Source of the DNA: Flavobacterium sp. | GTDB taxonomy: Bacteria > Bacteroidota > Bacteroidia > Flavobacteriales > Flavobacteriaceae | DNA length: 49,742 nucleotides | Assembly (NCBI GenBank): GCA_025351785.1 | Contig: JANXVF010000090.1 | Coordinates: 1 to 49,742 of the forward strand | Direction: 5' to 3' | In this document: one piece after another, positions 24,683-33,458 of the stretch | Numbering within the stretch: position 1 is the stretch's first letter | Layout: each line of letters begins with the position of its first letter | Made by a program: the position numbers and the translations under genes | Notes under the pieces: generated by a model | Told to the model about the DNA's origin: nothing | What the model saw: only the letters and a program-made list of their open reading frames with translations | Database searches by the model: none

Positions 24683-26773
24683 ATGTTAGAAGAAAAGAAT
24701 GATAACCTGTTGGACAATCAAAATACAACAGATGGAAAAGAAAATGACTCAGTTAAAGACGACGCAACTGCTCAAATTGAGGAAACTAAAGTTGATGTTG
24801 AATCTGTTCAAGAAGTTATAATAACTCCTACAGAACCTACCGATGAATTGGTTGAAACTGATAATATAACCTCTGCTCTAGAAGAAATTGCACCTGAAAA
24901 GGTAATCGAATTAACTGACAATCAAGTTGCTGATGATTCTATAGAAATTCAAAATCCGCAAGTTGATGTAATGGACGAAATTTCTAGTTCAAATGCAGCA
25001 GAAAGCGAAGATGAAACTCTAAAGGCTAGACATGATATTCCAATGGAGGATTATGAAGCTATGACCATGGAAGATTTGCTTGAATCGCTTGAAAAAATTG
25101 TGGTTGTAGACAAAGTAATGTCTGTTAGAGAACATGTTGAGGAAATAAAAAAAGCCTTTCTTTCGAAATATTATCATTTTATAGATGAAAAAAAGGATGC
25201 GTTTTATGCTGAAAATCCAGATACTAAAGAAGATTTTCAGTATCAATCACCTCTAAAATCAAAATTTGATACGTTATATTCTAATTATAGAGATAAAAAA
25301 AATACACATTTTAAATCGTTGCAAACAAACCTGCAACAAAATTTAGAAAATCGTTTATCGCTAGTAGAGGAATTGAAAAATTTAATTCATTCCCCAGAAA
25401 ATATTACAGCATCTTTAAAACAACTTAACGATATTAGAGAACGCTGGAAAATTGCAGGAGCTATTCCAAAAGATAAATACAATCATGTCTGGAATAACTA
25501 TCATTTTCACATAGAAAATTTTTATGATTTTTTACATTTAGATAGAGAAGCGCGAGATATTGATTTTAAACACAATTTAGATTTAAAATTGAAAATTATA
25601 GCTCGTGTAGAAGAGTTAGTTTCCGACCCAGACTCTAACAAAGCGTTTAGAGAGTTACAAGATTTACATAAAATCTGGAAAGAAGACATTGGTCCCGTAT
25701 CTAGAGATAATAGAGAAATTATTTGGAAACGTTTTAGCGAATTGACTAAGCAAATGCATGACCAACGCGAAGCTTATTATGAAGGTTTTAGAGCCGTTGA
25801 AACTGAAAATTTAGTCATTAAAAACACTATTATTGAACAACTAATTTTGTTGTCTAAAGAAAGTGTTAATTCGCACCAAGCGTGGCTCAACCAAATTGTG
25901 AAAGTCGAAGCATTGCGCGATGAATTTTTTAAAACAGGTAAAGTGCCAAGCGATGTAAACGAAGCCACTTGGAGTAGTTTTAAAACTGCAGTTAAAGATT
26001 TTAATGTGTTGAAAAATTTATTTTACAAGGACATTAAAAAAGATCAAAACGATAATTTAATAAAAAAACAAGCATTAGTTGCAAAAGCAAACGAACTTAA
26101 AGAAAGTGATGATTTTGTTGGAACTACAGCATTGATGAAGCAAATTCAAGAAGATTGGAAACAAATAGGTCATGTTCCTAGAAAATTTTCAGATCAGCTG
26201 TGGGTAGAATTTAGAGGCGCTTGTAACCATTATTTTGAGCGTTTAAAAAACAGTAAAAAAGAAGAAGATGGCGAAGAGGTTGCTGCTTTTGAAAAGAAAA
26301 AAGAATATTTAGAAACGTTGAAGAGTTTTGAATTAACTGGCGAACACAAACCAGATTTAGATGCTATAAAACTTCATATCGAAACCTGGAAAAGTTTGGG
26401 TAGAGTACCATTTAACAGAAGGCATATTGAAGGAAAGTTCAATAAAATATTAGATTTATTATTTGAAAAGTTGAGTTTGAGCAAAAAAGATACTGAAAAG
26501 ATGCGTTTTGCAAATAAACTAGAAAACCTAAGTGATGATTCTCGAAAATTAGACGGTGAAAAAACATTTATAATGCGAAAAATTGAAGAAGTCAAAAGTG
26601 AAATTTTTCAATTAGAAAATAACATTCAGTTTTTTCAAAACACAAAAAATGCCAAGAAAGAAAATTCAATAGTTACCGAAGTTAGAAAAACTATCGCAGG
26701 TCACAAAGAGGAACTCGAAACTTGGAAAGATAAATTGAAACAAATTAGAGAATTGAACAAAACAGAAAATTAA
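24683..26773 (+). CDS. DUF349 domain-containing protein
   Basis: 696 residues, cytoplasmic. Residues 1 to about 115 are acidic and low-complexity (rich in Glu, Asp, Thr), probably disordered. From about 130 on there are several copies of a helical repeat with the recurring pattern 'I...WK..G.(I/V)P(R/K)....(L/I)W..F....(D/N).F', e.g. RERWKIAGAIPKDKYNHVWN, KIWKEDIGPVSRDNREIIWK, EDWKQIGHVPRKFSDQLWVE and ETWKSLGRVPFNRRHIEGKF; this is DUF349. The C-terminal ~90 residues are a charged coiled coil. Function unknown in general. It lies directly upstream of the trp promoter with no terminator seen between. Confidence 0.9.
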   Translation: MLEEKNDNLLDNQNTTDGKENDSVKDDATAQIEETKVDVESVQEVIITPTEPTDELVETDNITSALEEIAPEKVIELTDNQVADDSIEIQNPQVDVMDEISSSNAAESEDETLKARHDIPMEDYEAMTMEDLLESLEKIVVVDKVMSVREHVEEIKKAFLSKYYHFIDEKKDAFYAENPDTKEDFQYQSPLKSKFDTLYSNYRDKKNTHFKSLQTNLQQNLENRLSLVEELKNLIHSPENITASLKQLNDIRERWKIAGAIPKDKYNHVWNNYHFHIENFYDFLHLDREARDIDFKHNLDLKLKIIARVEELVSDPDSNKAFRELQDLHKIWKEDIGPVSRDNREIIWKRFSELTKQMHDQREAYYEGFRAVETENLVIKNTIIEQLILLSKESVNSHQAWLNQIVKVEALRDEFFKTGKVPSDVNEATWSSFKTAVKDFNVLKNLFYKDIKKDQNDNLIKKQALVAKANELKESDDFVGTTALMKQIQEDWKQIGHVPRKFSDQLWVEFRGACNHYFERLKNSKKEEDGEEVAAFEKKKEYLETLKSFELTGEHKPDLDAIKLHIETWKSLGRVPFNRRHIEGKFNKILDLLFEKLSLSKKDTEKMRFANKLENLSDDSRKLDGEKTFIMRKIEEVKSEIFQLENNIQFFQNTKNAKKENSIVTEVRKTIAGHKEELETWKDKLKQIRELNKTEN

Positions 26774-26807
26774 AATTAAAATTTATTTATTTTTAAATAA
26801 CAATTAC

Positions 26808-26815
26808 TACATTTG
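26808..26815 (+). promoter_or_regulatory. candidate -7 promoter element of the trp operon
   Basis: TACATTTG fits TAnnTTTG and predicts transcription from about 26822, which places the leader-peptide ATG about 11 bases into the transcript. No -33 TTG at standard spacing. Confidence 0.6.
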
Positions 26816-26832
26816 TAATTCATAAAAATATT

Positions 26833-26889
26833 ATGTACAACATTTTGAAAAATACCTGTTGGTGGAATAATTTACGTCAAACGTCGTGA
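26833..26889 (+). CDS. trp operon leader peptide (18 residues, tandem Trp codons)
   Basis: ATG-to-TGA mini-ORF reading MYNILKNTCWWNNLRQTS. Trp codons 10 and 11 are adjacent TGG TGG at 26860-26865. It lies between the predicted start of transcription and a strong intrinsic terminator, just upstream of trpEGDCFBA: the arrangement of a ribosome-mediated attenuator. Starved of charged Trp-tRNA the ribosome would stall on the WW pair. Too short for ordinary ORF calling. Gene symbol trpL would be by analogy only. Confidence 0.85.
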   Translation: MYNILKNTCWWNNLRQTS

Positions 26890-26961
26890 AATAGTCTAGC
26901 ATTGGTATAATTTAAAAACCAAAAATATAAAGGACTTGTCATCACGGCAAGTCCTTTTTTT
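26885..26961 (+). promoter_or_regulatory. trp attenuator: antiterminator and terminator
   Basis: The terminator pairs 26930-26940 with 26946-26956 (AAGGACTTGTC with GGCAAGTCCTT, one G-U pair), loop ATCAC, then seven T (26955-26961). A competing fold can be drawn: CGTGA (26885-26889) with TCACG (26942-26946), AGTCT (26893-26897) with GGACT (26932-26936), and TTGGT (26902-26906) with ACCAA (26918-26922), nested. The 5' strand of this antiterminator overlaps the leader stop codon (26887-26889), so a ribosome reaching the stop would block it and allow termination, while one stalled at 26860-26865 would leave it free. The terminator is clear; the antiterminator is inferred and not very stable. Confidence 0.8.
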
Positions 26962-27032
26962 GTCAGAATTATTTCAGAATCTTAACAAAATAGCATTGTC
27001 ATCGTGAACGCTATTGAAAGAATTAAATTAAA

Positions 27033-28439
27033 ATGAAAATGAAAACATTCAAACTAAATACAAACCACAAGCAAATCCTAGCCGATACAATCACACCTGT
27101 GAGTATTTATCTCAAACTGCGTGATAAATTTCCAAATAGTTTATTGCTCGAAAGTTCAGATTATCATGCTAACGACAATAGTTTTTCTTACATCTGTTGC
27201 AACCCAATTGCATCTATAAAGATTGAAAATGATAGCATTACAAAACAATTTCCAGATAATACATTTGAGATACTAAAAATTGAAAGTACAATAAGTGTAG
27301 CTAATGAAATTCAAAAATTTGCCTCACAATTTGAATCTAATAATGAAAGTTTTAAATTTATAACTAACGGTCTATTTGGCTATATAAATTATGATGCAGT
27401 TCGCTATTTTGAGAAAACAACGATAACAAAAAAACCAAATTCAAACGAAACACCTGATATTTTTTATGCCATCTATCAGAATATAATCGCCATAAATCAT
27501 TTTAAAAATGAAGCTTTTATTTTTTGTAATGCATTTGAATCAGTAAATAATATTGACGAAATCGCACAATTATTACAATCTAAAAACTTTGCTACTTATA
27601 CATTTAAAAAAGAAGGCAAAAAAACTTCAAATTGTTCTGATTCTGAATTTAAATCGAATGTTTCTTTAGCAAAAAAGCATTGCAAACGAGGAAATGTTTT
27701 TCAATTAGTACTTTCTAAACGATTTTCTCAAAAATTTAAAGGCGATGAGTTTAATGTTTATCGAGCGTTGCGAAGTATCAATCCTTCTCCTTATTTATTC
27801 TTTTTCGATTACGGAAATTTCAAAATATTTGGTTCATCACCCGAAGCGCAATTGATAATTAAAGACCGAGTTGCCGAAATCCATCCAATTGCTGGAACAT
27901 TTAAACGTTCAGGAAATGATGAACAAGATGCCATTTTTGCCAAACAATTATCCGAAGACAGTAAAGAAAATAGCGAACACGTTATGCTTGTAGATTTGGC
28001 AAGAAACGATTTAAGCCGAAACGGAAACCATGTCAAAATTGAAAAATACCGCGAAGTGCAATTTTTTTCGCACGTAATTCACTTGGTTTCCAAAGTTACT
28101 AGTATATTATTTCCATCCATAAATTCAATGCAAGTTGTAGCAGACACATTTCCAGCAGGAACATTATCGGGAGCGCCAAAACACAAAGCTATGGAATTAA
28201 TCAACAAAATTGAATCTACAAATCGAGGATTTTATGGCGGAGCAATAGGTTTTATGGATTTCAAAGGCAATTTTAATCACGCAATTATGATACGAACTTT
28301 TTTAAGTAAAAATCATACTTTGCATTATCAAGCAGGTGCAGGAATTGTAGAAAGTTCAGATGAAGAAAACGAATTGAATGAAGTATATAATAAACTTGGT
28401 GCATTAGATAAAGCTCTAGAGCTAGCCGAAGAAATTTAA
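27033..28439 (+). CDS. trpE: anthranilate synthase component I
   Basis: 468 residues; converts chorismate (with ammonia supplied by TrpG) to anthranilate. The chorismate-binding fold shows FFFDYGNFKIFGSSPEAQL, EIHPIAGTFKRSGNDEQDA, HVMLVDLARNDLSRNG, FPAGTLSGAPKHKAMELI and GGAIGFMDFKGNFNHAIMIR. The N-terminal domain contains LLESSDYH (about 35-42), the region of the Trp feedback site (LLES) in TrpE proteins, so end-product inhibition is likely. Two possible ATGs (27033 and 27039) differ by two codons. First gene of the trp operon, preceded by the attenuator. Confidence 0.96.
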   Translation: MKMKTFKLNTNHKQILADTITPVSIYLKLRDKFPNSLLLESSDYHANDNSFSYICCNPIASIKIENDSITKQFPDNTFEILKIESTISVANEIQKFASQFESNNESFKFITNGLFGYINYDAVRYFEKTTITKKPNSNETPDIFYAIYQNIIAINHFKNEAFIFCNAFESVNNIDEIAQLLQSKNFATYTFKKEGKKTSNCSDSEFKSNVSLAKKHCKRGNVFQLVLSKRFSQKFKGDEFNVYRALRSINPSPYLFFFDYGNFKIFGSSPEAQLIIKDRVAEIHPIAGTFKRSGNDEQDAIFAKQLSEDSKENSEHVMLVDLARNDLSRNGNHVKIEKYREVQFFSHVIHLVSKVTSILFPSINSMQVVADTFPAGTLSGAPKHKAMELINKIESTNRGFYGGAIGFMDFKGNFNHAIMIRTFLSKNHTLHYQAGAGIVESSDEENELNEVYNKLGALDKALELAEEI

Positions 28440-28483: not shown

Positions 28484-29053
28484 ATGAAAAACATACTTAT
28501 AATAGACAATTACGACAGCTTTACCTACAATTTAGTTCACTATTTAGAAGATTTAAACTGTAAAGTAACCGTTTTTAGAAACGACGAATTTGAGTTGGAT
28601 GAATTGCAAAAATATGATAAAATTTTACTTTCGCCTGGACCAGGAATTCCGGATGAAGCTGGTTTACTAAAAGCTGTAATTCAAAAATATGCTCCAAATA
28701 AATGCATTTTGGGAGTTTGTTTGGGTCAACAAGCGATCGGAGAAGTGTTTGGCGGAAGCCTAACCAATCTTGAAAAAGTATATCATGGAGTTGCCAGTAA
28801 AATTAAAATTGTAGTAACCGATGAATCGCTTTTTAATGGTTTAGAAAACGAAATTGAAGTAGGTCGTTATCATTCGTGGGTGATTTCTAAAGATAATTTT
28901 CCTGCTGATTTAGAAATAACTTCTGTGGATGCAAATGGAGAAATAATGTCTATAAGACATAAAAAATATGATGTAAAAGGCGTTCAATTTCACCCAGAAA
29001 GCATCTTAACTCCAAATGGAAAACAGATTTTAGAAAATTGGGTAAATCTATAA
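28484..29053 (+). CDS. trpG: anthranilate synthase component II (glutamine amidotransferase)
   Basis: 189 residues, class I glutamine amidotransferase. Triad visible: nucleophile Cys in ILGVCLGQQAIGE (about 75-87), and His-Glu in GVQFHPESILTPNG near the C-terminus; the oxyanion loop is LSPGPGIPDE. It releases ammonia from glutamine for TrpE. Stand-alone protein, not fused to TrpD as in enterobacteria. PabA could serve both pathways, but its position between trpE and trpD settles the primary role. 44 bases after trpE. Confidence 0.96.
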   Translation: MKNILIIDNYDSFTYNLVHYLEDLNCKVTVFRNDEFELDELQKYDKILLSPGPGIPDEAGLLKAVIQKYAPNKCILGVCLGQQAIGEVFGGSLTNLEKVYHGVASKIKIVVTDESLFNGLENEIEVGRYHSWVISKDNFPADLEITSVDANGEIMSIRHKKYDVKGVQFHPESILTPNGKQILENWVNL

Positions 29054-29113
29054 CAAACTCAAAATTCAAGTTCAATTAAAAACAGAATGAAATTTATCGT
29101 TCATTATAATATT

Positions 29114-30106
29114 ATGAAAAAAATACTAAACCGATTAATAAATCACGAAATTTTAACCAAAGAAGAAGCTAAATCCATCTTGGTAGATATCTCTAAAGCG
29201 CAATTTAATATGAGTCAAATTGCTTCCTTTTTGACGGTTTATATGATGCGAAGTATAACTATTGAAGAACTCGCAGGCTTTCGTGAAGCACTTCTAGAAT
29301 TGTGTATTCCTATAGATTTTTCCCAATATAATACTATTGATTTATGCGGCACTGGTGGCGATGGAAAAAATACATTCAATATTTCAACACTTGCCTCATT
29401 TGTAGTAGCTGGAACTGGAATAAAAGTTGCCAAACACGGAAATTATGGTGTTTCTTCTATTTCTGGATCAAGTAATGTGATGGAAAGTTTGGGAATCAAA
29501 TTAAGTTCAGAAAACGATTTTGTTCAAAGAAGCATTGACAAAGCAAATATTGCCATTCTTCACGCGCCATTATTTCATCCAGCGATGAAAAATGTAGGTC
29601 CAATTCGTAAAGAGCTTGGTGTTAAAACGTTTTTTAATATACTTGGTCCAATGGTAAATCCGTCGTTTCCAAAGAATCAAGTGATAGGAGTTTTCAGCCT
29701 CGAGCTAGCAAGAATGTATAGTTATTTATATGAAAATACCGATACCAATTTTTGCATTTTACACGGATTAGATGGTTTTGATGAAATTTCGTTAACCGAT
29801 GAAACCAAAATCATATCAAAAAATAATGAATTCATTTTAAAACCTGAAAATTTCAATTTGCAAAAACAAGAATTACATCAAATAAAAGGTGGCGAAACTA
29901 TTGATGAATCTGCTTCAATTTTCTATAATGTAATTTCAGGAAAAGGAACAAATGAACAGAATAATGTTGTTTGTGCCAATGCTGGAGTGGCAATTGCAAC
30001 AGTTGAAAATAGTTCAATTTTGGATGGTTTTTCTAAAGCAAAAGAAAGTTTATTAGGGGGAAAAGCGTTAGAAAAACTAAAAATTTTACAGGAATTAAGC
30101 AAATAA
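29114..30106 (+). CDS. trpD: anthranilate phosphoribosyltransferase
   Basis: 330 residues from the ATG at 29114 (MKKILNRLINHEILTKEEA), which gives the standard family start; an in-frame ATG at 29087 would add nine residues and is less likely. Motifs: DLCGTGGDGKNTFNIST (PRPP-binding), VAKHGNYGVSS, LHAPLFHPAMKNVGPIRKELGVKTFFNILGPMVNP (anthranilate site). Transfers the phosphoribosyl group of PRPP to anthranilate. 60 bases after trpG and 3 bases before trpC. Confidence 0.96.
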   Translation: MKKILNRLINHEILTKEEAKSILVDISKAQFNMSQIASFLTVYMMRSITIEELAGFREALLELCIPIDFSQYNTIDLCGTGGDGKNTFNISTLASFVVAGTGIKVAKHGNYGVSSISGSSNVMESLGIKLSSENDFVQRSIDKANIAILHAPLFHPAMKNVGPIRKELGVKTFFNILGPMVNPSFPKNQVIGVFSLELARMYSYLYENTDTNFCILHGLDGFDEISLTDETKIISKNNEFILKPENFNLQKQELHQIKGGETIDESASIFYNVISGKGTNEQNNVVCANAGVAIATVENSSILDGFSKAKESLLGGKALEKLKILQELSK

Positions 30107-30109
30107 AAT

Positions 30110-30895
30110 ATGAACATACTTGACAAAATAATTGTAGACAAAAGACGAGAAGTATTGCTGAAGAAATCAATAATTCCAGCATCACAATTAGAAAATTCAG
30201 TACTTTTCGATAGCAAAACCATTTCTTTAAGCAAAAGTTTACGTGCAAGTTCAACTGGTATTATTGCCGAACATAAACGCCGTTCACCATCTAAAGCAGA
30301 AATAAATTACAATTTCAGTGTTGAAGAAGTTGTTAAAGGATATGAAAATGCTGGTGTTTGTGGCATTTCGGTTTTAACCGATGGAAAATATTTTGGTGGT
30401 TCATTAGACGATTTATTGTTGGCACGAGCAACTGTAAATATACCGTTATTGCGAAAAGAGTTCATTATTGACGAATATCAATTACTGGAAGCAAAAGCAT
30501 TTGGTGCAGATGCTGTTTTATTAATCGCATCGGTTTTAACTCGAGCAGAAATTAAGAAATTTTCTGAATTTGCTCAATCTTTAGCCTTAGAAGTTTTATT
30601 AGAAATTCATGACGAATCAGAACTTGAAAAATCAATTATGCCAAGTTTAAATATTATCGGAGTAAATAATAGAAGCCTTAAAACTTTTGAAGTTAACTTG
30701 AAAAATAGTTTCAATTTAGCCTCAAAAATTCCGAATCAATTTATAAAAATATCCGAAAGCGGAATCTCAAGTATAAATTCGATTAAAGAGCTTCAAAAAT
30801 ATGATTATCAGGGTTTTTTGATCGGAGAAAAATTTATGAAAACTGAAAATGCTGGATTTGAAGCTACTAAATTTATAAACAATTTAAAGCTATGA
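30110..30895 (+). CDS. trpC: indole-3-glycerol phosphate synthase
   Basis: 261 residues, TIM barrel. Motifs: IIAEHKRRSPSKAEIN with the catalytic Lys, GISVLTDGKYFGGSLDDL, LLRKEFIIDEYQLLEAKAFGADAVLLI, GVNNRSLKTFEVNL, and ISESGISS. Catalyses decarboxylating ring closure of CdRP to indole-3-glycerol phosphate. Separate from trpF, unlike the E. coli fusion. Its stop overlaps the trpF start by four bases (ATGA, 30892-30895). Confidence 0.96.
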   Translation: MNILDKIIVDKRREVLLKKSIIPASQLENSVLFDSKTISLSKSLRASSTGIIAEHKRRSPSKAEINYNFSVEEVVKGYENAGVCGISVLTDGKYFGGSLDDLLLARATVNIPLLRKEFIIDEYQLLEAKAFGADAVLLIASVLTRAEIKKFSEFAQSLALEVLLEIHDESELEKSIMPSLNIIGVNNRSLKTFEVNLKNSFNLASKIPNQFIKISESGISSINSIKELQKYDYQGFLIGEKFMKTENAGFEATKFINNLKL

Positions 30896-31521
30896 AACTC
30901 AAAATTTGTGGCATGAAGAATTCTGAAAATATCTCAGAAATAGCAGAACTCCTACCCGATTATTTAGGATTGATTTTCTGGGAAAAATCAGCTCGTTTTT
31001 TTGACGGAATTCTTCCTGAAATTCCAAAATCAATTTTAAAAGTTGGAGTTTTTGTAGATGCAAATTTTAATAAAATTAGTTCAAAAATTGAAAAATATCA
31101 GTTAGATTTAGTTCAATTACACGGAAATGAAACTCCTAAATTTTGCAAAAAATTATACGATTCAAATGTTTCAATCATCAAAGCCTTTTCGATAAATAAT
31201 GATTTTAATTTTGAAATTTTAAAAGAATATGAATCGATTTGCGATTATTTTTTGTTTGATACAAAAGGAAAACTTCCTGGCGGAAACGGAACTACATTTG
31301 ATTGGAAATTATTAGAAAAATATGACAGCAACAAACCCTTTTTTCTCAGTGGAGGAATAGGTTTAAAGGAAATGTTACAAATAAAAAACTTTCAAAAAAC
31401 AAAAATTGCACCCTATTGTATTGCAATTGATGTTAATAGCAAATTTGAAAATAAAGCTGGAATTAAAATAAAAAAAGACCTATCAGAATTTAAAAAATTA
31501 CTATATGAAAATGAATTATAA
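30892..31521 (+). CDS. trpF: phosphoribosylanthranilate isomerase
   Basis: 209 residues, short TIM barrel. The catalytic Cys is in [11 protein letters not shown] (3-13), followed by [49 protein letters not shown] (with the catalytic Asp) and LSGGIG near the phosphate site. Isomerises phosphoribosylanthranilate to CdRP. Overlaps both neighbours: four bases with trpC and 11-17 bases with trpB, indicating tight translational coupling. Confidence 0.95.
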
Positions 31522-32695
31522 CGTAGATAATAACGGCTATTATGGCAACTTTGGTGGTGCATTCATTCCAGAAATGTTATATCCAAATGTAGAAGAATTG
31601 CGAAAAAATTATTTAAAAATAACTGCAGAACCTTCATTTCAAAAAGAATTTATGGAGCTGCTAGTTGATTATGTAGGACGACCAACACCGTTGTTTTTTG
31701 CCAAACGATTGTCTGAAAAATATAATACAAAAATTTATTTAAAACGTGAAGATTTGTGTCATACTGGTGCACATAAAATTAATAACACTATCGGACAAAT
31801 TTTGGTTGCAAAACGATTAGGCAAAACTAGAATCATTGCAGAAACTGGCGCAGGACAACACGGAGTAGCAACTGCAACTGTTTGTGCGCTAATGGGTTTA
31901 CAATGCATTGTATATATGGGAGAAGTCGACATAAAACGTCAAGCACCAAATGTGGCACGAATGAAAATGCTTGGAGCCGAAGTAAGACCTGCATTATCAG
32001 GTTCAAAAACTTTGAAAGATGCTACAAATGAAGCAATTAGAGATTGGATAAATAATCCAGAAAATACCCATTACATTATCGGTTCAGTAGTGGGTCCGCA
32101 TCCTTATCCTGACATGGTAGCTCGATTTCAAGCCATAATTTCAGAAGAAATAAAAGCACAATTACTTGAAAAAGAACGTACAGAATTTCCAAATTATGTT
32201 ATAGCATGTGTTGGTGGTGGAAGCAATGCCGCTGGCGCATTTTACCATTTTTTAAATGATGAAAACGTAAATTTAATTGCAGTTGAAGCTGCGGGAAAAG
32301 GAGTAGAATCTGGCGAAAGTGCAGCTACATCAATTCTTGGAAAAATCGGAATTATTCACGGAAGCAAAACACTTTTAATGCAAACAAATGATGGGCAAAT
32401 AACAGAACCCTATTCTATTTCGGCAGGATTGGATTATCCAGGAGTTGGTCCTTTACACTCCCATTTATTTGAAACAAAAAGAGCAGAATTTATTGCAATT
32501 ACTGATCAAGATGCTATGCAAAGTGGAATAGAATTATCGCAACTGGAAGGGATAATTCCAGCAATAGAAACAGCGCATGCTTTTTCAGTATTTGACAAAA
32601 AACAATTCAAACCAACTGATATAGTGGTAGTTAATCTTTCTGGTCGTGGTGACAAAGATTTAAATACATACATTGATTATTTTAAACTATACTAA
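31505..32695 (+). CDS. trpB: tryptophan synthase beta chain
   Basis: 396 residues, TrpB1 type. PLP Lys in [13 protein letters not shown] (about 90-102), [19 protein letters not shown], and the phosphate-binding [28 protein letters not shown] is the standard N-terminus. Condenses indole with serine. The first ATG (31505) and a second at 31511 are both possible; both lie inside the end of trpF. Only one base separates its stop from the trpA ATG. Confidence 0.97.
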
Positions 32696-32696
32696 A

Positions 32697-33458
32697 ATGA
32701 ATCGAATAAATTCTAAATTAAAAGAAGATAAAAAACTATTATCTATCTATTTTACAGCAGGTTATCCAAATATAAATGACACCGTTTCTATAATTCAAGA
32801 ATTGGAAAAAAATGGTGTGGATATTATAGAAATTGGATTGCCTTTTAGCGATCCGTTAGCCGATGGACCTACTATTCAAGCTAGTTCAACTCAAGCTATT
32901 CAAAACGGAATGACAACCGAGTTGTTGTTTGAACAGCTTAAAGATATTCGAGAAACGGTAACAATTCCGCTGTTAATTATGGGGTATTTCAATCCGATGT
33001 ATCAATATGGGATTGAAGCATTTTGCAAAAAATGTAACGAAATCGGAATAGACGGATTGATAATTCCTGACTTGCCTTTAAACGAATTTGAAAACCATTA
33101 CAAATCTGTATTTGGATTGGAAAATTTAAAAAATATTTTCCTAATTACACCTCAAACTTCAAATGAAAGAATTGTACAAATAGATGCCATTTCAGACAGT
33201 TTTATTTATATGGTAAGTAGTGCAAGTGTAACTGGCAGTAATCAAGGATTTGGAAATAATGAAACAACTTATTTTGAAAGAATTGCTGATTTAAATCTTA
33301 AAAATCCACAAATAATTGGCTTCGGAATCAACTCTAAAGAAACATTTGCACAAGCAGTGAAACACCAAAAAGGAGCAATTATTGGAAGTGCATTTATAAA
33401 ATTTCTTGAAAATAATAAAATTAATTCAATCAATAAATTTATTAAACTAATTATATAG
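32697..33458 (+). CDS. trpA: tryptophan synthase alpha chain
   Basis: 253 residues from the ATG at 32697; a longer frame starting inside trpB adds eight residues and is rejected. TIM barrel with the catalytic Glu in DIIEIGLPFSDPLADGPTIQ and the catalytic Asp following it, plus GFGINSKE and GAIIGSAFIK at the phosphate site. Cleaves indole-3-glycerol phosphate to indole, channelled to TrpB. Last gene of the trp operon; no clear intrinsic terminator follows in the 107 bases before the efflux promoter. Confidence 0.95.
   Translation: MNRINSKLKEDKKLLSIYFTAGYPNINDTVSIIQELEKNGVDIIEIGLPFSDPLADGPTIQASSTQAIQNGMTTELLFEQLKDIRETVTIPLLIMGYFNPMYQYGIEAFCKKCNEIGIDGLIIPDLPLNEFENHYKSVFGLENLKNIFLITPQTSNERIVQIDAISDSFIYMVSSASVTGSNQGFGNNETTYFERIADLNLKNPQIIGFGINSKETFAQAVKHQKGAIIGSAFIKFLENNKINSINKFIKLII

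What the first reader, a model, noticed from the sequence alone, without database searches (positions are those of the whole stretch)
26808..27032. Complete transcription attenuator in front of trpEGDCFBA
Seen directly: a -7 element (26808-26815), an 18-codon leader ORF MYNILKNTCWWNNLRQTS with tandem Trp codons at 26860-26865, and a GC-rich terminator with seven T at 26930-26961. The layout is that of ribosome-mediated attenuation known from proteobacteria, here in a flavobacterial operon with unfused genes, where it has been less studied than TRAP or T-box control.
Basis: partly seen in the sequence, partly recalled or inferred. Interest (0 to 1): 0.72.

Follow-up and report, generated by a model that had tools for sequence, protein, structure and literature searches.

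The report
Bacteroid-trp attenuator before trpEGDCFBA
The stretch in front of this flavobacterial tryptophan operon belongs to a catalogued RNA leader family and is predicted to let transcription into the operon go on only when ribosomes stall at two tryptophan codons for lack of tryptophan.

Summary
In detail: -7-like box, 18-codon leader with two Trp codons, terminator with seven T, then trpEGDCFBA. It is not new in kind. The stretch is a member of Rfam RF01692 (Bacteroid-trp; 68.5 bits, cut-off 49), published in 2010; 275 of 397 genomes of the family match it at E<=0.001. Within 249 genomes of the genus the leader tracks trpD (162 both, 15 trpD only, 3 leader only, 69 neither). Its core lies 19-20 nt after the last Trp codon in 80 of 95 leaders although the stop codon drifts. 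Folding predicts that it forms when a ribosome is held at the Trp codons. TrpR and TRAP have no match in the genome. The likely mechanism is classical ribosome-mediated attenuation; nothing was measured. The unexpected find lies outside the window: the same cassette, with Lys codons at the same 19-nt spacing, stands before aspartokinase genes in Chryseobacterium, Myroides and Flavobacterium. This natural codon swap supports the mechanism; my paper searches found no description of it.

The parts
26808..26815 (+). -7-like promoter box TACATTTG (TAnnTTTG; the flavobacterial consensus is recalled)
   Evidence: TAnnTTTG lies upstream of the leader in 90 of 95 loci, the window's included, against about 0.06 expected per stretch
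26833..26889 (+). leader ORF MYNILKNTCWWNNLRQTS with stop TGA 26887-26889
26860..26865 (+). tandem Trp codons TGG TGG; preceded by TGT where 92 of 95 loci have a third TGG
26871..26876 (+). region 1 (TTTACG), predicted to pair with 26885-26890 when no ribosome is present (protector)
   Evidence: pair probability 0.96-0.98 in the untranslated RNA; kept in only part of the relatives (70.4% of cells paired)
26883..26889 (+). region 2 (GTCGTGA), 5' side of antiterminator helix I; overlaps the leader stop codon
26893..26897 (+). AGTCT, 5' side of antiterminator helix II, pairs with 26932-26936
26932..26936 (+). GGACT in the 5' arm of the terminator, 3' side of antiterminator helix II
26942..26948 (+). 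region 3 (TCACGGC): terminator loop and top of the 3' arm, 3' side of antiterminator helix I
26930..26956 (+). intrinsic terminator hairpin (26930-26940 with 26946-26956)
   Evidence: 99.6% of cells paired, 8 of 11 pairs with changes on both sides in 94 sequences
26955..26961 (+). run of seven T
26813..26940 (+). match to Rfam RF01692 Bacteroid-trp, 68.5 bits
27033..28439 (+). trpE (468 aa)
28484..29053 (+). trpG
29087..30106 (+). trpD
30110..30895 (+). trpC
30892..31521 (+). trpF
31505..32695 (+). trpB
32673..33458 (+). trpA (the TTG start listed is the first in frame; the match to TIGR00262 begins at residue 17)

Best explanation
It is a Bacteroid-trp (Rfam RF01692) leader in front of trpEGDCFBA that most likely controls the operon by ribosome-mediated transcription attenuation. 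Predicted steps: when charged tRNA-Trp is scarce, a ribosome would stall at the Trp codons 26860-26865, cover region 1 and leave GTCGTGA (26883-26889) free; this would pair with TCACGGC (26942-26948), helped by AGTCT with GGACT, as soon as these are transcribed. That antiterminator would take up the loop, the top of the 3' arm and part of the 5' arm of the terminator, so that RNA polymerase runs on into trpE. When Trp is plentiful the ribosome would reach the stop codon inside region 2 and mask it, the terminator would fold and transcription would end at the T run. If the leader is not translated, region 1 is predicted to hold region 2 and the terminator again forms. Shown: the sequence parts, their conservation and spacing, and the alternative pairings by computation. 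Inferred: the stalling, the kinetic win of the antiterminator, the response to Trp.
For: RF01692 at 68.5 bits, cut-off 49. Leader with Trp run and terminator in 95 of 95 fetched loci (leader presence is partly by selection, all 95 being RF01692 hits, but the model stops inside the 5' arm of the terminator). Antiterminator duplex at p<=0.05 against shuffled region 2 in 87 of 95 loci; its seven core pairs form in 91.6% of cells in 94 sequences, against 8.5-59.6% when slid. The core starts 19 nt (68) or 20 nt (12) after the last Trp codon in 80 of 95, while the stop codon lies from 7 nt before to 7 nt after the core start in the common classes. Folding of the window with accessible RNA ending at 26948-26952: antiterminator probability 0.94-0.96 with a ribosome at either Trp codon, 0.00 at the stop codon, 0.00-0.02 untranslated. 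Across loci: stalled >=0.5 in 87 of 89, at stop <=0.2 in 87 of 89. Leader tracks trpD: 162/15/3/69 of 249, Fisher p 1.8e-42. No TrpR or TRAP match in the genome, with controls ringing. Natural codon swap: the same cassette with Lys codons at the same spacing before aspartokinase genes.
Against: No expression data. From 26954 on and at full length the terminator is predicted to win in every ribosome state, so antitermination must win kinetically, which the folding does not show. The protector is not general: the untranslated RNA is predicted to form the antiterminator (>=0.5) in 35 of 89 loci, and only 43 of 89 show all three states; 1:2 pairing holds in 70.4% of cells, and one slid version has a higher covariation score. 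Covariation of the antiterminator core is thin: 5 cells in 2 of 7 pairs, a number of pairs that 53 of 500 shuffles reach; a version slid by +3 has nearly the same covariation score (0.079 against 0.080); and the outermost pair is absent in 42 of 94 sequences. L005 and L078 do not switch in the folding (in both the script anchored on an earlier CGTAA, so the test failed rather than the switch), L030 stays open (0.80) and L052 partly open (0.27) at the stop codon, and 6 of 95 loci have no CGT[GA]A core where the script looks. The window copy has two Trp codons where 92 of 95 loci have three. 15 of 177 genus genomes with trpD show no match to the family.
Confidence: 0.88

Rival explanations
1. 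The leader works without ribosome stalling at Trp: the terminator is a constitutive or growth-rate-dependent partial terminator and the sORF only keeps the leader translated.
For: No measured Trp response. In 35 of 89 loci the untranslated RNA is predicted to form the antiterminator, and the terminator is the more stable structure at full length.
Against: Two or three Trp codons in a row in 95 of 95 loci; 19-20 nt from last Trp codon to region 2 in 80 of 95 despite drift of the stop codon; Lys codons at the same place before aspartokinase genes.
Confidence: 0.06
2. A protein or a ligand (TrpR, TRAP, a T-box or a Trp riboswitch) controls the operon and the leader merely carries its site.
For: Such systems control trp operons elsewhere (recalled).
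Against: No PF01371 and no PF02081 match in the genome, while the controls ring (assembly listed as 99.94% complete, 176 contigs). RF01692 is the only Rfam match over its cut-off in the window, so no catalogued T-box or riboswitch.
Confidence: 0.04
3. The element is decaying in this genome: the third Trp codon became Cys and the antiterminator carries a G-U pair, so control is weak or lost.
For: CWW instead of WWW; TCACGG instead of TCACGA; the 68.5-bit score is below that of many genus relatives.
Against: The pairings are kept: the terminator has a matched change (A-U at alignment columns 101 and 123, G-C in 90 of 94) and helix II forms as AGTCT-GGACT. The folding still gives all three states (0.02 untranslated, 0.99 stalled, 0.00 at stop). 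Two Trp codons suffice in E. coli (recalled).
Confidence: 0.1

Closest known systems
Bacteroid-trp, Rfam RF01692 (Weinberg 2010, PMC2864571; passages seen: one table row)
   Same: Same family by covariance model, above the gathering score, same place before trpE, same leader with tandem Trp codons
   Different: Two Trp codons where 92 of 95 fetched loci have three; the Rfam structure line printed draws only the long hairpin and ends inside the terminator, without an antiterminator
E. coli trp attenuator, Rfam RF00513 Trp_leader (mechanism recalled)
   Same: Leader peptide with two Trp codons, protector, antiterminator and terminator as exclusive pairings
   Different: No match to RF00513 in the window; here the core antiterminator helix uses the terminator loop and the top of the 3' arm, with a second helix on the 5' arm, where E. 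coli uses the 5' arm (recalled)
Leader upstream of the trp operon of Flavobacterium psychrophilum (PMC6414381, one passage read; PMC9723704, passages read)
   Same: Bacteroid-trp upstream of a flavobacterial trp operon; the second paper reports clues for leader-peptide attenuation before amino-acid operons
   Different: No test of the switch in the passages read; no antiterminator described there
Lys leader before aspartokinase in Chryseobacterium, Myroides and Flavobacterium (this work, L145, L146, L165-L210)
   Same: Homologous cassette after the sensing codons: TTACG..CGTGA, terminator with TCACGA-like loop, 19 nt from the sensing block to CGTGA
   Different: Lys codons (typically KKxKK) instead of Trp; RF01692 scores 46.9, 46.2 and 38.9 in 3 of 8 sources and nothing at E<=1 in the other 5, below the cut-off

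Membership tests
Bacteroid-trp (RF01692) | covariance-model score at or above the gathering score (49 bits) | tested here: met
   68.5 bits over model positions 1-131
Bacteroid-trp (RF01692) | lies upstream of a tryptophan biosynthesis gene | tested here: met
   the trpE ORF starts at 27033, 71 nt after the T run; order E-G-D-C-F-B-A
Bacteroid-trp (RF01692) | short ORF with tandem Trp codons (recalled as a feature of the family; seen in 95 of 95 fetched loci) | tested here: met
   TGG TGG 26860-26865
Bacteroid-trp (RF01692) | occurs in Bacteroidetes | tested here: met
ribosome-mediated transcription attenuator (as a mechanism) | intrinsic terminator between leader ORF and first gene | tested here: met
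ribosome-mediated transcription attenuator (as a mechanism) | antiterminator exclusive with the terminator and placed so that a ribosome at the sensing codons frees it and one at the stop codon masks it | tested here: met
   by sequence and folding only
ribosome-mediated transcription attenuator (as a mechanism) | protector (1:2) hairpin for the untranslated state | tested here: inconclusive
   predicted in the window, not general in relatives
ribosome-mediated transcription attenuator (as a mechanism) | readthrough responds to charged tRNA-Trp | not testable with these tools
   needs experiment
E. coli-type Trp_leader (RF00513) | covariance-model match | tested here: not met
   no match in the window at the gathering score, nor at E<=1 in 26600-27100
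T-box leader or TRAP-controlled leader | T-box Rfam match; TRAP protein in the genome | tested here: not met

The most novel reading that the evidence does not exclude
Bacteroid-trp is one setting of a codon-addressed attenuator cassette in Flavobacteriales: the part after the sensing codons (19-nt spacer, TTACG..CGTGA, antiterminator and terminator) is reused, and exchanging Trp codons for Lys codons re-aimed it at lysine and placed it before lysC-type aspartokinase genes in Chryseobacterium, Myroides and Flavobacterium.
Probability: 0.75. Interest if true: 0.6.

Novelty: new member of a known kind. Interest (0 to 1): 0.42.

Why it matters
For the window it settles the likely control of its trp operon and supplies the antiterminator that the Rfam drawing lacks. 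More widely, homologous Trp and Lys versions of one cassette give a natural codon swap: the sensed amino acid would change with the codons while the switch stays. If confirmed it would show how attenuators acquire new specificities, and it would add lysine sensing by leader peptide in a phylum where the passages I read describe such attenuation from sequence and transcriptome data only.

Tried and rejected
Rejected: control by TrpR or TRAP and by a catalogued T-box or riboswitch. His-leader hunt in the own genome with CAYCAYCAYCAY: 24 matches against 11 for the backward control, not followed further. Of the weaker R1 hits (about 45 bits and less) I looked at nine: L150, L160, L153-L156, L163 and L164 look like ordinary terminators by eye, L152 is the opposite strand of a trp terminator; none was counted, and the other weak hits were not looked at. 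The RF01692 hit L133 in G335 looks by eye like the start of a coding frame and was dropped. The hairpin between terminator and trpE (26989-27015) was considered as a second control element; it resembles a dispersed repeat instead (no match with up to 3 mismatches to a repeat consensus in the window) and was left out. The dna search (179 of 249) was not used as a count of leaders, because many of its matches cover trpE alone. In the pattern scan the 19-nt spacing and the KKQY residues are built into the pattern, so those 26 loci count only for terminator, downstream gene and taxon; the spacing evidence comes from L145 and L146 (found by R1) and L191-L210 (found by blastn with the L146 stretch as query; L191 is the query's own locus and L192 has the same leader). 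The Lys loci overlap: four pairs of L191-L210 with L165-L190 are identical over 2.2-3.3 kb, and L145 with L176 over 1.75 kb. Rows dropped: alignment A1 left out L004, near-identical to L003 (94 of 95 used); model R1 used 46 of the 87 sequences left after dropping 8 of 95 (L004, and L077, L084, L087, L088, L090, L091, L092, which depart from the common core); the three-state folding left out 6 of 95 without core. The 40 loci were picked by me from the listed matches, not at random.

Full report
OBSERVATION. The leader folds far better than shuffles (z -5.18). The genes behind it are trpE, G, D, C, F, B and A in this order.

FAMILY. A scan of the window against Rfam gives one match over its cut-off: RF01692, Bacteroid-trp, 26813-26940, 68.5 bits against 49. 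The family was published in 2010 (PMC2864571; I read passages, where it appears as one table row). A 2019 paper notes the element upstream of the trp operon of F. psychrophilum (PMC6414381, passages), and a 2021 transcriptome paper reports clues for leader-peptide attenuation before amino-acid operons of that species (PMC9723704, passages). So the finding is real but belongs to a known kind.

DISTRIBUTION. RF01692 matches at E<=0.001 in 275 of 397 genomes of the family (241 over the cut-off), 42 of 395 drawn from the phylum, most of them from this family, and 165 of 249 of the genus (163 over the cut-off). TrpD occurs in 177 of the same 249. Comparing the two lists, 162 have both, 15 trpD only, 3 leader only, 69 neither (Fisher p 1.8e-42). 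Of the three leader-only genomes G837 is 76% complete, while in G828 and G840 the leader stands before a trpB gene; G982, which has trpD, also has a leader before trpB. The link is therefore with Trp synthesis, not with trpE alone.

ANTITERMINATOR. The Rfam structure line printed covers the long hairpin and stops inside the terminator. In 95 loci (1, the window's own; 30; 24; 40 fetched) a leader with tandem Trp codons and a terminator are present in 95. Between the Trp codons and the terminator lies, in most, GTCGTGA or TTCGTGA, complementary to TCACGAC in the terminator loop and the top of its 3' arm. The best duplex of this region with the terminator reaches p<=0.05 against shuffles in 87 of 95 loci. 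On 94 aligned sequences the seven core pairs form in 91.6% of cells; slid by 1-3 columns 8.5-59.6% form. The covariation is thin: 2 of 7 pairs with double changes, which 53 of 500 shuffles reach, and a version slid by +3 has nearly the same covariation score; the outermost pair is missing in 42 of 94. The sequence of the core hardly varies, so conservation and spacing carry the case. The terminator shows 8 of 11 pairs with double changes.

SPACING. The core (CGTGA or CGTAA) begins 19 nt after the last Trp codon in 68 loci and 20 nt in 12, of 95; 6 have no core and 9 another distance, two of which (L005, L078) are an earlier CGTAA caught by the script. Within the 80, the stop codon drifts: 54 have it 2 nt inside the core, 12 have it 7 nt downstream and 12 have it 7 nt upstream of the core start. 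What is held constant is the distance from the sensing codons, as a stalled ribosome would require.

SWITCH. For the window, with accessible RNA ending at 26948-26952, the antiterminator has probability 0.94-0.96 if a ribosome sits at either Trp codon, 0.00 if it sits at the stop codon, and 0.00-0.02 if the leader is untranslated, where region 1 (26871-26876) holds region 2. A ribosome covering 12 nt past the first base of the A site was assumed. From 26954 on the terminator is predicted to win in every state, so the switch must be kinetic. Over 89 evaluable loci of 95 the stalled state gives >=0.5 in 87 and the stop state <=0.2 in 87 (L030 0.80, L052 0.27); the untranslated state is <=0.2 in only 46 and >=0.5 in 35, and 43 of 89 show all three states, so the protector is not general.

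OTHER REGULATORS. PF01371 (TrpR) and PF02081 (TRAP) have no match in the genome; both searches ring in control genomes.

WINDOW-SPECIFIC CHANGES. The window copy reads TGT TGG TGG where 92 of 95 loci (not L001, L037, L086) and all 14 best other genus loci have three TGG. It also has a matched change in the terminator and a G-U in the antiterminator. Folding still gives all three states.

A LYSINE VERSION. One weak RF01692 hit, L132 in G840 (46.2 bits, below the cut-off), carries the leader MNTWIIKKGKKQYLRRTS before an aspartokinase gene. I built a model, R1, from 46 trp cassettes starting after the Trp codons and searched 12 genomes. Besides trp leaders it strongly hit G840 (67.6 bits) and G982 (67.0 bits), both Lys leaders before aspartokinase. 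In the own genome only the trp leader scored well (the other two hits have E 0.55 and 0.69). A pattern scan of named genomes found 26 loci: 15 Chryseobacterium, 7 Myroides, 2 Flavobacterium sp. and 2 Flavobacteriaceae bins. 26 of 26 have a terminator of the same kind, and the 23 with readable downstream sequence begin an ORF MKVLKFGGTSVG. Six such ORFs, five of these plus that of L146, were scanned: lysine-sensitive aspartokinase 3 on top but below its cut-off, aspartate kinase above its cut-off. A blastn search with the L146 leader gave 20 long matches (E<=1.9e-16) in 20 of 398 genus genomes, the query's own among them, and shorter matches at about 75% identity to query 88-174 in many more genomes, several at the coordinates of trp leaders. 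G840 was missed there, so 20 is a lower bound. 46 of 46 loci L165-L210 match R1 at E<=1e-4, though some are the same species twice. In L191-L210 the distance from the end of the KK block to CGTGA is 19 nt in 20 of 20: 18 by the first ATG ORF, L198 with a GTG start and L199 by its second ORF. In 19 distinct leaders the outer Lys codons vary between AAA and AAG, as a coding constraint predicts, while the two inner ones are AAG in all 19. Folding gives antiterminator >=0.5 in 19 of 19 when stalled at Lys and <=0.2 in 19 of 19 at the stop, but >=0.5 in 10 of 19 untranslated. Rfam hardly reaches these: in 8 sources RF01692 scores 46.9, 46.2 and 38.9 in three and nothing in five, and no lysine riboswitch appears at E<=1. 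My paper searches for a Lys leader of this kind (listings; passages of PMC9723704 and PMC2659441) found none.

CONCLUSION. The finding is an ordinary but well-formed member of Bacteroid-trp, most likely a ribosome-mediated attenuator. What is added here is the antiterminator geometry and the homologous Lys version, in which nature has swapped the sensing codons.

Noticed in passing
L132/L145 (G840:C26:24106-24253), L146 (G982:C1:1643106-1643193), L165-L210: Lys-codon leaders with the Bacteroid-trp antiterminator/terminator cassette before aspartokinase genes in Chryseobacterium, Myroides and Flavobacterium.
   Followed up: yes
L127 (G982), L128 (G840), L130 (G828): Bacteroid-trp-like leaders (68.2, 60.7 and 44.3 bits) in front of trpB; G840 and G828 have no trpD match, which would fit indole salvage under Trp control. 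In G982 the next ORF after trpB is on the other strand; not checked in the other two.
   Followed up: partly
L126 and L131 (G936:C1:2988205-2988333 and 2984354-2984483): Two trp leaders 3.9 kb apart in one genome; only the second is followed by trpE, with five ORFs on the other strand between them.
   Followed up: partly
26996-27021: The stretch between terminator and trpE resembles a repeat (TTGTCATCCTGAGCGCAGTCGAAGGA) seen at the same place in L097 and, varied, in L099; here degenerate, 20 of 26 bases.
   Followed up: partly
26857-26859: TGT (Cys) where 92 of 95 loci have a third Trp codon TGG; a point change or a sequencing error.
   Followed up: partly
L134 (G982:C1:762598-762752): A divergent WWW leader (45.1 bits) before a trpE-like gene, with a different terminator and no CGTGA core.
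   Followed up: no
24683-26773: The gene upstream of the leader is a 696-aa protein with five DUF349 stretches.
   Followed up: no
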